Below are positions 4,908 to 12,977 of a stretch of DNA of 22,282 bases, piece after piece; the first letter of the stretch is position 1; each line of letters begins with the position of its first letter. The notes beneath the pieces were generated by a model, which searched no databases, was not told where the DNA came from, and saw only the letters and a list, made by a program, of their open reading frames with translations. Made by a program: the position numbers and the translations under genes. The stretch is from a virus, in IMG/VR virus record IMGVR_UViG_3300045135_003636, positions 1 through 22,282 of that record; one strand, written 5' to 3'.

Positions 4908-4997
4908 TGGCGGAAGCGGTGGGATTCGAACCCACGGTAGGCTTTCACCTACGCTGGTTTTCAAGACCAGAGCCTTAAACCACTCGGCCACACTTCC
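4908..4997 (-). tRNA. tRNA-Ser (anticodon TGA)
   Basis: Read on the minus strand, the gene begins GGAAGTG at 4997 and ends CGCTTCC-G-CCA at 4908. The 7-bp acceptor stem pairs with one G-T wobble. The anticodon arm is CTGGT-CTTGAAA-ACCAG giving TGA, the long variable arm (CGTAGGTGAAAGCCTACG) is the class II hallmark of serine tRNA, and the T-arm has GGGTTCGAATCCC. The discriminator is G, as expected for Ser. CCA is encoded. It lies head-to-tail with two other tRNAs with only 2-base gaps, so they are probably processed from one transcript antisense to the late operon. Confidence 0.93.
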
Positions 4998-4999
4998 TT

Positions 5000-5084
5000 T
5001 GGTGCCCCCTGCCGGACTCGAACCGGCACGCCCGAAGGCAAGGGATTTTAAGTCCCTGGCGTCTACCTATTCCGCCAAGGGGGC
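5000..5084 (-). tRNA. tRNA-Leu (anticodon TAA)
   Basis: On the minus strand the acceptor GCCCCCT (5084 downward) pairs perfectly with AGGGGGC, followed by discriminator A and an encoded CCA ending at 5000. The anticodon arm AGGGA-CTTAAAA-TCCCT gives anticodon TAA. A long variable arm (CTTGCCTTCGGGCG) and the T-arm CCGGTTCGAGTCCGG complete a class II leucine tRNA; A73 agrees with Leu identity. It reads TTA, and TTG by wobble, both of which should be rare in a genome this GC-rich. Confidence 0.93.
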
Positions 5085-5086
5085 GG

Positions 5087-5162
5087 TGGTAGGCCCGGCA
5101 GGATTCGAACCTGCGACCAAGGCGTTATGAGCGCCCTGCTCTAACCGCTGAGCTACAGGCCC
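5087..5162 (-). tRNA. tRNA with CAT anticodon, probably tRNA-Ile2 (lysidine-modified)
   Basis: 76 nt on the minus strand, starting GGGCCTG at 5162 and ending with discriminator A and encoded CCA at 5087. The acceptor has a G1-T72 wobble; other pairs fit. The anticodon loop is CTCATAA. The body (GTAGCTCAGCGGTTAGAGCAGG ... CTTGGTCGCAGG in two parts) closely parallels E. coli ileX rather than elongator tRNA-Met. If so, C34 would be converted to lysidine by host TilS and the tRNA would read ATA. Initiator identity is excluded because the initiator-type C1-A72 mismatch is absent. Met elongator remains possible. Confidence 0.85.
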
Positions 5163-6995: not shown

Positions 6996-7301
6996 GACTA
7001 TTGTGCCGCGTGCCCCTCTGTGTGCGTGGAATGCCCTCGGACCCAGCACAAACCTCTCACCCTGGAAGGCTGGCAGGTCTGGGATCTTGTTCAGCGCCTC
7101 GGCGGACAAATGCGCGTCGCGGGCAGTATGAACGGCGGCGCTATCCTCGGCTGGGACATGGGCGCGGCCCTTCAGCTTGGGGCGGCCCTCGGGCTCTCGC
7201 CGCTCATAATCGCAGAGCTCCTGCCGCCGATCGAGGCGGTGATGGTGCGCAAAATGAACGCGCAGACTGGATCAGGCAGCCTGGAGGGGCTTGATGTCTG
7301 A
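6954..7301 (+). CDS. Tail chaperone T extension, expressed as GT fusion by -1 frameshift
   Basis: Frame -1 relative to the gpG-like gene, open from 6954 to the stop at 7299-7301, adding 115 residues (RLTALADWEFGGGGDYC onward) to give a GT product of about 234 residues. A stand-alone start would be the GTG at 7020, but it has no ribosome site and would cut off the first CxxC of a CAAC-PSV-CVEC cluster, a possible zinc site. The fusion keeps all four cysteines, which supports frameshift expression. Further on are helical segments (LTLEGWQVWDLVQRLGGQM, LSPLIIAELLPPIEAVMVRKMN). The final 30 bases overlap the 3' end of the reverse-strand higA gene. Inferred role: the long chaperone form bridges tape measure and tail tube protein. 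Confidence 0.75.
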   Translation, partial: RLTALADWEFGGGGDYCAACPSVCVECPRTQHKPLTLEGWQVWDLVQRLGGQMRVAGSMNGGAILGWDMGAALQLGAALGLSPLIIAELLPPIEAVMVRKMNAQTGSGSLEGLDV

Positions 7302-7562
7302 GACATCAATGGTCTCGCGGGCACGCGCCAGATCCCAGGCGCGCTGGAGGTTCATCCAGTACTCCGGCGTCGTTGAAAAAAAACGGGCGAGCCGCATCGC
7401 GGTATCAACCGTGATAGCGGTCTGGCCTTTGACAAGGCGCTCGATCCGGGTGCGCGGCACGCCAAGCTTTGCAGCAAGCGTGATCGCGCTCATATCGAGT
7501 GGGGTCAGGTACAGCTCGGCCAGGACTTCGCCCGGGTGGGATGGATTGGTGACGAGGCTCAT
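7272..7562 (-). CDS. higA: HigA-family antitoxin (HTH)
   Basis: 96 residues from the ATG at 7562, with AGGAGG seven bases upstream on the minus strand; longer in-frame starts up to 7640 run into the toxin gene. The protein follows the HigA antidote pattern closely: HPGEVLAELYLTPLDMSAI, then an XRE-type helix-turn-helix (LAAKLGVPRTRIERLVKG), TVDTAMRLARFFSTTPEYWM and NLQRAWDLARARE. HigA binds and neutralises HigB and represses the operon through its HTH. It lies 11 bases after the toxin stop, in toxin-first order typical of higBA. Its 3' end overlaps the T-extension of the tail chaperone on the other strand. Confidence 0.92.
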   Translation of the reverse strand: MSLVTNPSHPGEVLAELYLTPLDMSAITLAAKLGVPRTRIERLVKGQTAITVDTAMRLARFFSTTPEYWMNLQRAWDLARARETIDVSDIKPLQAA

Positions 7563-7573
7563 GTCAGGCCCTC

Positions 7574-7855
7574 CTAGTGATAGTCCACGATCTCGACCTG
7601 TGAAGGTCCTTGATCGGTCCAGATGAAACAGATGCGCCATTGTCCGTTAATGCGCACCGAATGTTGTCCCGCGCGATCCCCGCTCAGGGCTTCAAGGTGA
7701 TTGCCCGGCGGAAACCGTAAATCTTCAAGTTCGACCGCAGCGTCTAATGCCGAAAGCATGGCACGCGTGCGTTTCACGATGTCGGCCGGAAAGCCTTTGC
7801 CAAAGCGGTCCTGAACCGCTCCAGCGGCAAGCTTTCCTCTTACGCTTACGATCAT
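7574..7855 (-). CDS. higB: HigB-family toxin (RelE/ParE fold mRNA interferase)
   Basis: 93 residues from ATG 7855. The sequence matches the HigB pattern throughout its second half: LEDLRFPPGNHLEALSGDR, GQHSVRINGQWRICFIW and the terminal VEIVDYH. HigB toxins cleave mRNA on translating ribosomes; the C-terminal Arg, Tyr/His and neighbouring basic residues are the usual active-site region. Longer upstream in-frame starts (to 8140) would overlap the tape-measure start and read as antisense. No Shine-Dalgarno precedes the ATG, so translation may be leaderless or weak, which would keep toxin below antitoxin. Tail assembly does not need it; it is a moron-type cassette. Confidence 0.92.
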   Translation of the reverse strand: MIVSVRGKLAAGAVQDRFGKGFPADIVKRTRAMLSALDAAVELEDLRFPPGNHLEALSGDRAGQHSVRINGQWRICFIWTDQGPSQVEIVDYH

Positions 7856-10382: not shown

Positions 10383-10978
10383 GCATCATTGTGGAATTGC
10401 CGCGCACCTGGGTGGCTGGGATCGAACGACGGCTCGTGACAGCCACCAGCCAGACGCAGTCGCCCTTTACCGGGACGACAGAGGTGCAGGACTGGGGCGG
10501 CGAATGGTGGGAATATGATATCGAATTTGCCGCGCAATCCGGACCGCTGGCGCGCTCGGTCTCTGCGGCACTCACGGCCCTTGGCTCTGGCCGGGGGCTG
10601 CTGCTTTTTGCTGATCCCTCCATTGAGCCAAAAGGGCTGACGCAACCGGTGACGCTGGCGACGCCCATCACGGGCGGCAATGTCGTACAAACGCAAGGCT
10701 GGCCACCGGGGCTGCCCGCTATGGCCTCTGGCGACTTTGTCTCCATCGGCACCGCGCGCGACACGCGTCTGCATCAAATTGCCTTCGACGCGTCGGCGGA
10801 TATCAACGGTCTGGCGACGCTGACAATCTTTCCGGCGATCCGCCGCGCGCTGCCCACCAACACCCCGTTGGAGGTGAACAGGCCGCAGGTGCTGCTACGC
10901 CCCACGAGTTCTGTGCCAACGCGCATTGAACGCGCAGCGCGTCACCGCTTCACCCTGTCAGCCCGCGAGGCAGTCTAA
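10379..10978 (+). CDS. Tail-tip protein following the tape measure (distal-tail-like position)
   Basis: 199 residues; ATG overlaps the tape-measure stop. Beta-rich with PRTWVAGIERRLVTATSQTQSP, VQDWGGEWWEYDIEFA, and a late IERAARHRFTLSAREAV. The WGGEWWEYDIEF segment resembles the N-terminal domain of distal tail proteins, whose rings cap the tail tube end. In gene transfer agents and related siphophages the gene in this slot belongs to the tip. The stop TAA at 10976-10978 lies at the junction with the IS110 element; if the element boundary is at 10973/10974, the last codon and stop are supplied by the element, so the native C-terminus is uncertain. Confidence 0.6.
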   Translation: MSIIVELPRTWVAGIERRLVTATSQTQSPFTGTTEVQDWGGEWWEYDIEFAAQSGPLARSVSAALTALGSGRGLLLFADPSIEPKGLTQPVTLATPITGGNVVQTQGWPPGLPAMASGDFVSIGTARDTRLHQIAFDASADINGLATLTIFPAIRRALPTNTPLEVNRPQVLLRPTSSVPTRIERAARHRFTLSAREAV

Positions 10979-10986
10979 TGGACGAG

Positions 10987-12171
10987 TCAAGCGGCAGATT
11001 TGAAGTTTTCGACGAAAGGCTGTCTGGTATTGAGTATTGCCCAGATGACGTTGATGCGTCTTCGGGCGAGCGCGATGACAGCCTGGTTGTGTCTTTTCCC
11101 CTCGGCTCGTTTTCGATCGTAGAACGCTTTGCTTTCGGGGTGAGAAAGCGCGACGAAGGCGGACTGGAAGAAGACCCTCTTGAGCGCCTTGTCGCCGCCG
11201 TTTGCGCGGCGGATGGCGTAGGATTTGCCCGACTGGCGCAGGACCGGCGTGAGGCCGGCCGCGGCAGCGAGCCCGTCGGCGGAACGGAAACGGCGGATGT
11301 CGCCGATATTGGCGATGAGTTCTGCCGTCATCACGACCCCCATCCCCGGCAGGCTCTGAATGAGGGCCGCATCAGGGTGGCAGGCGAGCAGTTCGGCGAT
11401 GTCGCGGTCGATCTGGTCGCGCATCTCGCGGGCGCGCAGGGCCTCGGTGGCCAGTTCTTTGACGAGGCGTGCCCGCGTCACGGCGCCCGGCACGTCCACG
11501 GTCTGTGCCTTTGCGAGGGTGATCGCTTCCTCGGAAAGCTGCGCCACGCCGCGCGAGAGCGGAGCCAGACGCATGATCCTTCTGGCGGCGCTTGCTGGTC
11601 GCGCTGCGCGCAGTTCATGCGGGGCGGCAAAGAGGCTGAGGAAGGCCAGACCGGTCTTCGTCTTCACGTCGATCCGGCGTTCAAGTGCCGGAAACACCGA
11701 GGACAGCAGGTCGCGCAAACGCGCCAGGCGACGAGTCTGGTCGCGCACGATCTCACTCCTCCGACCTACCAGCAGGCGGATGTTCACGTCGATCTCGCGC
11801 TCGGTATCAACGGGGCGCAGATCAGAGCGGGTGCGCGCGAGCTCGGCGATCGTGGCCGCGTCGCGCGGGTCGGACTTGTTCTCGCCGCCCCGCATCCCCT
11901 GCCGCGCCCGGTTCACCGACAGCCCCGGCACATGCACCAGCCGAAAGCCCGCCTCCACGATCATCGCACACAAGAGCGTGGCCATACCGCCCAGAATGTC
12001 GATCGCGACCGTGACCTCGTCTGCGTCAAGCGCGCCAATGTCCTCGATCAGGGCTGCAATCTGGTCGGGTTGGTTTGCCACAGAGCAGCTGAGAAGCGGC
12101 TTGGCGTTCCCATCGACCGCGCAGGCCCAGTGCACCTCATTGGCCACATCGAGGCCGACAAATATCTTCAT
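10987..12171 (-). CDS. IS110-family transposase (DEDD plus Transposase_20 domains)
   Basis: 394 residues from ATG 12171, preceded on the minus strand by GGGAGG; an in-frame upstream ATG at 12213 lacks a site. The N-terminal RuvC-like domain shows the DEDD pattern with Asp8 in KIFVGLDVA, Asp58 in VAIDILGG, and Asp101/Asp104 in NKSDPRDAATIAELA. A central coiled region follows (about 135-265). The C-terminal Transposase_20 part contains LPGMGVVMTAELIANIGDI and the conserved QSG, with Ser314 as the expected nucleophile. All hallmark residues are present and the frame is intact, so it may be active. IS110 enzymes are RNA-guided DEDD/serine recombinases that move through a circular intermediate. 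Confidence 0.95.
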   Translation of the reverse strand: MKIFVGLDVANEVHWACAVDGNAKPLLSCSVANQPDQIAALIEDIGALDADEVTVAIDILGGMATLLCAMIVEAGFRLVHVPGLSVNRARQGMRGGENKSDPRDAATIAELARTRSDLRPVDTEREIDVNIRLLVGRRSEIVRDQTRRLARLRDLLSSVFPALERRIDVKTKTGLAFLSLFAAPHELRAARPASAARRIMRLAPLSRGVAQLSEEAITLAKAQTVDVPGAVTRARLVKELATEALRAREMRDQIDRDIAELLACHPDAALIQSLPGMGVVMTAELIANIGDIRRFRSADGLAAAAGLTPVLRQSGKSYAIRRANGGDKALKRVFFQSAFVALSHPESKAFYDRKRAEGKRHNQAVIALARRRINVIWAILNTRQPFVENFKSAA

Positions 12172-12214
12172 GGTAATCCTCCCTTGCCGTTTCCTATCAG
12201 GCAGCCTTCCCATG

Positions 12215-12400
12215 CCGTCCTCGCCCTACACAGCGATGATCCGCAGAACCTAATCAGCGGTCAGGTCAGGCGTTGGGACCGGGTGGTTCTGCCTCGCGAG
12301 CCATCGAGGGCGGCCACTATGATAGCCATCCCCGGTCCCCTGCCTCCGCACAGCATCGCACCAACCGTGCAACCCGCAAAGACATGCGTCGAAACGCAAG
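12215..12400 (-). ncRNA. Candidate bridge RNA of the IS110 element
   Basis: The 12172-12416 region has no gene. On the minus strand it can be folded by eye into a 5' hairpin (TGCGT/ACGCA, 12385-12398), a putative target loop closed by a perfect 9-bp stem (12331-12339 with 12275-12283), and a putative donor loop around 12229-12260. In the target loop, CGCGAGGCAG (complement of 12289-12298) equals the phage flank 10964-10973. In the donor region, ATTAGGTT (12247-12254) can pair with the right end (ATTAGACT, 10972-10979) using two G-T wobbles, and CGCTGTG (12229-12235) can pair with the left end CATAGCG (12413-12419) with one wobble. The left target guide (UGGCU, 12324-12328) is weak. RNA limits are estimates. 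Confidence 0.6.
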
Positions 12401-12416
12401 AAAAAGGTAGGGCGCT

Positions 12417-12977
12417 ATGAGCCGGGATATCACAAATGACATGGCCACAGCGCTCGATTGTGCTGAACTACAGCCTGCCATCTTCTTTGAAGGGGAATTC
12501 CCGTCGGGCATGGTGCGGATCTGGACCGGTCCGGGGCCGATGGATTGGGACGGCAAGACCTGGACCGGCGTCGGCGTGCTTCTGGGGCTTGGGGCTCTTG
12601 AGGAAACCTCGGATGTTGTTGCCTCTGGCACCACGGTCTCTCTCTCTGGCGTGCCGCTTGATCTTGTAGGGCTTGCGATTGATGAGGCGCGCCAGGGTCA
12701 GGCGGGACGTATCTGGCTGGCGCTGCTGACGGAGGACCGAACCGTCATCGCTGATCCCGTGCAGGCCTTTACCGGCCGTCTCGATGTGCCGGAACTGCAA
12801 GAGGACGGGCAGAGATGCCGGATCACGATCAGCTATGAAAGCCGGCTCATTGATCTGAGCGTGCCGCGCAATTGGCGCTACACCCATGAAAGCCAACAGG
12901 TCCTGCATCCGGGCGATCGTGGGTTTGAGCATGTGACGGCCATTCAAGATCAAGAGATCACTTGGGGGCGCGGCTGA
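12417..12977 (+). CDS. Tail-tip hub-like protein (lambda gpL / GTA hub position)
   Basis: 186 residues from ATG 12417. The sequence MSRDITNDMATALDCAELQP then FFEGEFPSGMVRIWTGPGPMDWDG is the usual opening of a family of tail-tip proteins in alphaproteobacterial siphophages; the C-terminal part (RCRITISYESRLIDLSVP, RNWRYTHESQQVLHPGDRGFEHV) resembles the phage hub region that ends in a WG motif (ITWGRG). It directly precedes the NlpC-like gene, as in lambda L-K and GTA order. Its start codon coincides with the edge of the IS110 element, so its native start may be this ATG or the ATG at 12441. The stop overlaps the next ATG (TGATG). Confidence 0.65.
   Translation: MSRDITNDMATALDCAELQPAIFFEGEFPSGMVRIWTGPGPMDWDGKTWTGVGVLLGLGALEETSDVVASGTTVSLSGVPLDLVGLAIDEARQGQAGRIWLALLTEDRTVIADPVQAFTGRLDVPELQEDGQRCRITISYESRLIDLSVPRNWRYTHESQQVLHPGDRGFEHVTAIQDQEITWGRG

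What the first reader, a model, noticed from the sequence alone, without database searches (positions are those of the whole stretch)
12215..12419. Bridge-RNA-like structure in the IS110 element with guide matches to its own ends and to the phage target
Seen: on the element strand, a 9-bp stem (12331-12339 with 12275-12283) closes a loop containing CGCGAGGCAG, identical to the phage flank 10964-10973 and ending in the AG of the CT core. Near a second, donor-type loop, ATTAGGTT (12247-12254) can pair with the right end ATTAGACT, and CGCTGTG (12229-12235) with the left end CATAGCG next to the other CT core. Known: IS110/IS621 elements use such RNAs with target and donor loops. Inference: this is a functional bridge RNA whose target guide still records the insertion site. 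The left target guide is weak (UGGCU only).
Basis: partly seen in the sequence, partly recalled or inferred. Interest (0 to 1): 0.8.

Follow-up and report, generated by a model that had tools for sequence, protein, structure and literature searches.

The report
Bridge RNA aimed at gene starts
A jumping gene sitting in a bacterial virus carries a guide RNA whose two short address sequences still spell out the exact spot where it landed, the ribosome-binding site and start codon between two virus genes, so it inserted without wrecking either gene.

Summary
The window is a viral contig with a 1,442-bp IS110-group element (10972-12413) inserted at a tail-gene junction. Relatives lacking it carry the uninterrupted site GCGAGGCGCTATGAGCC. 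The 5' non-coding end encodes a bridge RNA. A covariance model built without this sequence finds it at 12344-12202(-) with 101 bits (E=2.6e-19), and 19 of 29 consensus pairs show two-sided compensatory changes. The right target guide CGCGAGGC is right, but the next AG is a handshake guide to the element's own end, not core or phage DNA. The left target guide is not weak: UCAUAGU (12316-12322) pairs 7/7. The right donor guide is UAGGGC (12223-12228), not CGCUGUG. The core is GC, not CT. The real site scores best among 41,624 alternatives in the contig. Across 57 element-site pairs both target guides follow the flanks far beyond permutation. The address is a Shine-Dalgarno plus start codon: the upstream protein changes only its last residue, the downstream ATG survives, and the element supplies a new RBS-like sequence. 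The mechanism is the known IS621 one and the target preference resembles IS900's, so this is a well-supported new member of a known kind. Activity is untested.

The parts
10972..12413 (-). IS110-group insertion element, 1442 bp, inserted without target duplication (ends can slide up to 3 bp in the shared GCC)
   Evidence: Empty site in relatives L018/L020/L056/L057 equals window ..10971 joined to 12414..
10987..12171 (-). recombinase/transposase gene, 394 aa, DEDD_Tnp_IS110 + Transposase_20; acidic residues D8, D58, D101, D104 and S314 intact
   Evidence: Pfam; PDB match to IS621 8wt6, E 5.5e-16; residues invariant in 38 relatives
12202..12397 (-). bridge RNA (start near 12397 inferred from the -10 box; modelled part 12202-12344)
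   Evidence: Leave-out covariance model hit 12344-12202(-), 101.4 bits, E 2.6e-19
12385..12398 (-). 5' stem-loop UGCGU-UUCG-ACGCA
   Evidence: sequence; position as the 5' stem-loop of IS621 bridge RNA; not tested by covariation
12331..12339 (-). target-loop closing stem, 5' arm GGGACCGGG
   Evidence: 11 of 13 pairs of this helix show changes on both sides
12275..12283 (-). target-loop closing stem, 3' arm CCCGGUCCC
12316..12322 (-). left target guide UCAUAGU, pairs 7/7 (one G-U) with left target TCATAGC
12291..12298 (-). right target guide CGCGAGGC: CGCGAG pairs with right target CTCGCG, GC pairs with the core
12289..12290 (-). handshake guide AG, pairs with donor CT just left of the core
   Evidence: covaries with the right end in relatives, 1.92/2 vs 1.12 permuted
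12247..12254 (-). left donor guide AUUAGGUU, pairs with right end ATTAGACT
   Evidence: covaries: 4.70/5 vs 3.52 permuted
12223..12228 (-). right donor guide UAGGGC, pairs with GCCCTA of the left end
   Evidence: 6/6 in 23 of 23 distinct element ends
12404..12413 (-). left end GCCCTACCTT with -10 box TACCTT (12404-12409); core GC = 12412-12413
   Evidence: in the circle TTGACT-17 nt-TACCTT
10972..10990 (-). right end TTGACT...ATTAGACT; -35 box TTGACT 10985-10990 overlaps the recombinase stop codon
   Evidence: TTGAC conserved in all relatives
12414..12420 (-). left target (phage) TCATAGC = start codon side; downstream gene ATG 12417-12419
   Evidence: empty-site relatives
10964..10971 (-). right target plus core (phage) GCCTCGCG = Shine-Dalgarno-like CGCGAGGC on the gene strand
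   Evidence: empty-site relatives

Best explanation
The element is an IS110-group insertion sequence related to the Streptomyces/Mycobacterium branch (IS110/IS116/IS900-like). When it circularises, a promoter forms across the joined ends (-35 TTGACT in the right end, -10 TACCTT in the left end, 17 nt apart) and transcribes a bridge RNA of about 195 nt. One loop pairs with both strands of a target around a GC core (UCAUAGU left; CGCGAG+GC right). The other pairs with the joined ends of the element around the same core (AUUAGGUU left; UAGGGC right). The recombinase then exchanges strands at the core and inserts the circle without duplication. The target address reads, on the gene strand, a Shine-Dalgarno-like GAGG followed by the start codon at an ATGA stop/start overlap. 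The insertion therefore leaves both tail genes readable: the upstream protein ends REAV* instead of REAL*, and the downstream ATG is kept and preceded by an element-derived RBS-like sequence. Shown from sequence: boundaries, empty site, structure, guide pairing and covariation, one-residue change. Inferred: transcription, RNP formation, recombination and current activity (from IS621), and that the downstream gene is still translated.
For: Empty site in relatives. Covariance model built without the window finds it, E=2.6e-19; only weak background hits (best E=1) in 110 kb of related phage DNA. 29 pairs, 97.3% paired, 19 with two-sided changes, no shuffle reaches this. Target guides: 57 element-site pairs, left 6.26/7 vs 4.27+-0.13 and right 4.82/6 vs 2.71+-0.15 on permuted flanks; the window scores 7/7 and 6/6 plus core 2/2. 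Real site is the best of 41,624 positions in the contig. Donor guides and handshake guide covary with the ends. Core identical at both junctions in 68/68. Junction promoter in the relatives. Recombinase intact and similar to IS621. RBS pairing energy -5.9 before and -8.5 kcal/mol after insertion in the window; mean -7.6 before, -6.6 after over 39 loci, -2.7 to -3.5 for random sequence.
Against: No expression or activity data. Single-sequence folding is no more stable than shuffles (z=-0.68); the structure rests on comparison. Permutations do not remove shared ancestry. The RBS-like sequence is the reverse complement of the -10 region, so its role in translation may be a by-product. LTG pairing is poor in a few relatives (e.g. 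L156, L169, where the fixed register probably fails) and three loci could not be anchored. In the window's clade the RNA has one extra nucleotide between the left target guide and the second core base.
Confidence: 0.95

Rival explanations
1. The guide-flank matches are chance similarities in a GC-rich sequence; the left end is only an untranslated leader.
For: Matches are short; a single fold is not better than shuffles.
Against: Leave-out model, compensatory changes and guide-flank covariation across dozens of elements; the real site ranks first among 41,624 positions.
Confidence: 0.01
2. The recombinase protein itself prefers ribosome-binding sites, and guides look like the flanks only because both are purine-rich/start-codon-like.
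For: Many relatives share SD/ATG-type targets, so part of the pairing is shared (permuted left score 4.27/7).
Against: Other relatives with alignable recombinases have quite different guides and equally different targets (stop-codon contexts TCAGGCG-GC-GTCG in L148; TTCGTCGT-GC-ATCTCG in L151; TACATGAC-GC-ACATGG in L145), each matching its own guide.
Confidence: 0.03
3. A bridge RNA of the right kind, but the element is a dead relic that no longer moves.
For: Only one copy in the contig; no near-identical copies found in viral contigs or the genome collection; the left donor guide pairs with the right end through two G-U pairs.
Against: Recombinase frame, catalytic residues, all four guides, both promoter boxes and the core are intact.
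Confidence: 0.2

Closest known systems
IS621 bridge RNA and recombinase (IS110 group; PMC11208160, PMC11208158)
   Same: Bridge RNA in the left end, target loop before donor loop, LTG/RTG/LDG/RDG in the same order and strand logic, core inside the pairings, handshake guide, junction promoter, scarless insertion
   Different: Core is GC here (GC or TC in relatives) rather than CT; recombinase about 394 aa against about 326-328; second acidic residue Asp instead of Glu; target is a gene-start junction, not a REP element; no Rfam family reaches threshold on it
IS900 of Mycobacterium avium subsp. paratuberculosis (IS110 family; PMC8141618)
   Same: Published target motif CATGNNNNNNTCTCCTT = start codon plus antisense Shine-Dalgarno, rarely disrupts genes, long antisense ORF ('hed'); a M. 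avium IS110 relative (L015) carries guides UUUCAUG and GAAGGAGA that spell that kind of motif
   Different: IS900 itself was not examined here and its guides were not read; the window's spacing and motif differ (TCATAGC-GC-CTCGCG)
seekRNA of IS110/IS1111 elements (PMC11187229)
   Same: Short RNA from the non-coding end with segments matching both target strands, upstream of the transposase as in the IS110 type
   Different: No RNA data here; the tested elements have other targets
IS110-type elements of Sinorhizobium alkalisoli (L004) and Shinella zoogloeoides (L005) plasmids
   Same: 80% and 73% DNA identity, same loops, same gene-junction context
   Different: Target guides differ (UCAUGCU; CCGGAGGC / CGGGAGGC) and so do their flanks

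Membership tests
IS110-group insertion sequence | Recombinase with DEDD_Tnp_IS110 and Transposase_20 domains | tested here: met
   Pfam E 1.1e-35 and 1.3e-19
IS110-group insertion sequence | Catalytic acidic tetrad and serine | tested here: met
   D8, D58, D101, D104, S314 invariant in 38 relatives; the second residue is D, not the E of IS621
IS110-group insertion sequence | Insertion without target-site duplication | tested here: met
   empty-site comparison
IS110-group insertion sequence | Left non-coding end longer than right (IS110 rather than IS1111) | tested here: met
   left about 242 bp, right about 15 bp
Bridge RNA (IS621 type) | Conserved structured RNA in the left end with target loop then donor loop | tested here: met
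Bridge RNA (IS621 type) | Target guides pair with both strands of the insertion site and covary with it | tested here: met
Bridge RNA (IS621 type) | Donor guides pair with both ends of the element and covary with them | tested here: met
Bridge RNA (IS621 type) | Same core dinucleotide in target and donor | tested here: met
   GC at both junctions; equal in 68/68
Bridge RNA of the IS621 subgroup | CT core as in IS621 and close orthologues | tested here: not met
   core GC or TC in this branch; Durrant et al. show other cores can work, so this separates it from the IS621 subgroup, not from bridge RNAs as a whole
Bridge RNA (IS621 type) | Handshake guide pairing with donor positions 6-7 | tested here: met
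Bridge RNA (IS621 type) | Sigma-70 type promoter across the circle junction | tested here: met
   TTGACT-17-TACCTT by sequence; not measured
Bridge RNA (IS621 type) | RNA expressed, bound by the recombinase, required for recombination | not testable with these tools
   needs experiment
IS900-like RBS-targeting behaviour | Insertion between Shine-Dalgarno and start codon, transposase gene opposite to host genes | tested here: met
   window and annotated L004, L005, L013, L017

The most novel reading that the evidence does not exclude
In this branch of IS110 the bridge RNA is evolved to read gene boundaries (Shine-Dalgarno plus start codon, or in sister groups a stop-codon context), and the element's own ends repair what they split: a stop codon for the upstream gene and a new ribosome-binding site for the downstream gene. 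That would be RNA-guided, translation-neutral insertion, and would explain the long-known IS900 target preference.
Probability: 0.4. Interest if true: 0.65.

Novelty: new member of a known kind. Interest (0 to 1): 0.45.

Why it matters
It is a natural record of guide-directed insertion, with the guide, the filled site and the empty site all in hand, in a branch of IS110 whose core is GC/TC instead of CT and whose address is a gene start. It gives testable guides for a recombinase subfamily used little so far, and offers an RNA explanation for why IS900-like elements land between the ribosome-binding site and start codon with little damage.

Tried and rejected
Rfam gathering-threshold scan finds no bridge RNA, so an own model was built. 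Single-sequence folding is uninformative. Single-protein scans of viral and genome contigs found no close copies; relatives came from plasmids and from Streptomycetaceae genomes. No DNA match in the phage collection. The CT core, the CATAGCG left end, the CGCUGUG donor guide and the UGGCU target guide were considered and rejected after the empty site and the relatives were seen. A phage-specific targeting role was considered and rejected: relatives with similar guides sit in plasmid metabolic, replication and partition genes, and nothing in the address is phage-specific. Two script runs were spoiled by a wrong CDS start and by loose anchors; both were redone.

Full report
What is there. The window is a 22,282-bp viral record of a tailed phage or prophage (major head, tape measure, distal tail and tail-fibre proteins). 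On the minus strand lies an IS110-group element: the recombinase CDS 10987-12171 has both Pfam domains, is related by sequence to IS621 (PDB 8wt6, E 5.5e-16) and keeps D8, D58, D101, D104 and S314, all invariant among 38 relatives.

Boundaries and empty site. Viral relatives of the interrupted tail-gene pair carry the junction unbroken: CGCGAGGCGCTATGAGCCGGGATATC in L018, L020, L056 and L057. Comparison gives an insertion of exactly 1,442 bp, 10972-12413, with no duplication or loss. In the element's orientation the target is TCATAGC-GC-CTCGCG, the left junction TCATAGC-GC-CCTACC and the right junction ATTAGACT-GC-CTCGCG. The string shared by both junctions is GC(C), so the exchange point is the GC core. 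In 68 of 68 relatives analysed the dinucleotide at this position is the same at both junctions, GC or TC.

The RNA. Thirty-six relatives (Rhizobiaceae and other plasmids, Streptomycetaceae genomes) were aligned without the window and turned into a covariance model. It finds the window at 12344-12202(-) with 101.4 bits, E=2.6e-19; in 110 kb of related phage DNA nothing scores better than E=1. On the alignment with the window, 97.3% of cells pair against 85.8% after shuffling, and 19 of 29 pairs change on both sides, with no shuffle reaching this and with sliding the partners destroying it. Folding of the single sequence is not significant.

Guides. Guide positions were taken from homology, not searched for. 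Left target guide UCAUAGU pairs 7/7 with TCATAGC; right target guide CGCGAGGC pairs 6/6 with CTCGCG and 2/2 with the core; left donor guide AUUAGGUU pairs with ATTAGACT; right donor guide UAGGGC pairs with GCCCTA. The AG following the right target guide pairs with the CT just outside the core in the donor, the place of the handshake guide of IS621 (PMC11208158). In 57 non-redundant element-site pairs, left guides pair 6.26 of 7 positions with their own flank against 4.27+-0.13 with permuted flanks (maximum of 20,000: 4.82), right guides 4.82 of 6 against 2.71+-0.15 (maximum 3.33); with one row per guide and within the nine closest relatives the result holds. Donor guides: 4.70 of 5 against 3.52+-0.16, and 6 of 6 in 23 of 23 against 4.95+-0.14. 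Handshake guide: 1.92 of 2 against 1.12+-0.10. Scanning the window's two target guides over both strands of the rest of the contig, no position of 41,624 reaches the 15/15 of the real site; the next best has 13. Two copies of one element at different sites (L008/L010, L011/L012; several in Streptomyces) keep the guide-matching bases and differ outside.

Promoter. In the circle, TTGACT (10985-10990) and TACCTT (12404-12409) stand 17 nt apart across the core; the -35 box overlaps the recombinase stop codon, and both boxes are recognisable in the relatives. This is the arrangement reported for IS621 (PMC11208160). It predicts an RNA start near 12397.

What the address means. On the gene strand the target reads CGCGAGGC-GC-TATGA: a Shine-Dalgarno-like GAGG and the start codon at an ATGA stop/start overlap. 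The upstream tail protein ends REAL* in empty relatives and REAV* in the window; the downstream ATG is intact. The 20 nt before that ATG pair with the 16S tail at -5.9 kcal/mol before and -8.5 after insertion; over 39 loci with a nearby ATG the means are -7.6 before and -6.6 after, against -2.7 to -3.5 for random sequence. Because the RBS-like AAGGTAGGG is the reverse complement of the -10 region, this may be a by-product, so the repair idea is an inference. Annotated relatives (L004, L005, L013, L016, L017) sit between two same-strand genes that face the recombinase gene. Other Streptomyces groups have guides and targets at stop-codon contexts (e.g. UCAGGCGGC in L148), each matching its own site.

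Known context. The mechanism is that of IS621 (PMC11208160, PMC11208158) and of seekRNA (PMC11187229). Insertion at start codon plus Shine-Dalgarno is the published motif of IS900, CATGNNNNNNTCTCCTT, with rare gene disruption (PMC8141618). A M. avium IS110 relative (L015) carries guides spelling that kind of motif, but IS900 itself was not read here. That IS900 was described early on as inserting between ribosome-binding site and start codon is from my own knowledge. No paper in the held library has both 'bridge RNA' and 'IS900', which is not proof of novelty.

Limits. No expression or activity data; permutations do not remove shared ancestry; a few relatives could not be anchored or pair badly in the fixed register; only one group of genomes (Streptomycetaceae) was sampled in depth.

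Noticed in passing
7275-7846 (-): A HigB-like toxin (PF05015) and an HTH antitoxin lie between tail genes, antisense to them.
   Followed up: partly
4908-5162 (-): A trio of tRNA genes (Ser-TGA, Leu-TAA, Met-CAT) sits inside the structural gene module, on the opposite strand.
   Followed up: no
10978-12420 (+): A 480-codon antisense ORF spans the whole element; its ATG comes from the element and lies shortly after the phage Shine-Dalgarno-like GAGG, like the 'hed' ORF of IS900. It is open in most but not all relatives and may reflect codon bias.
   Followed up: partly
L141, L143, L148, L170-L179, L188-L189: Streptomyces IS110 groups whose left guides read UCAG.. target stop-codon contexts (TGA) at gene ends rather than start codons.
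   Followed up: partly
10987-12171 (-) and relatives: The second catalytic acidic residue is Asp (D58) in all 38 recombinases examined, where IS621 has Glu60.
   Followed up: partly
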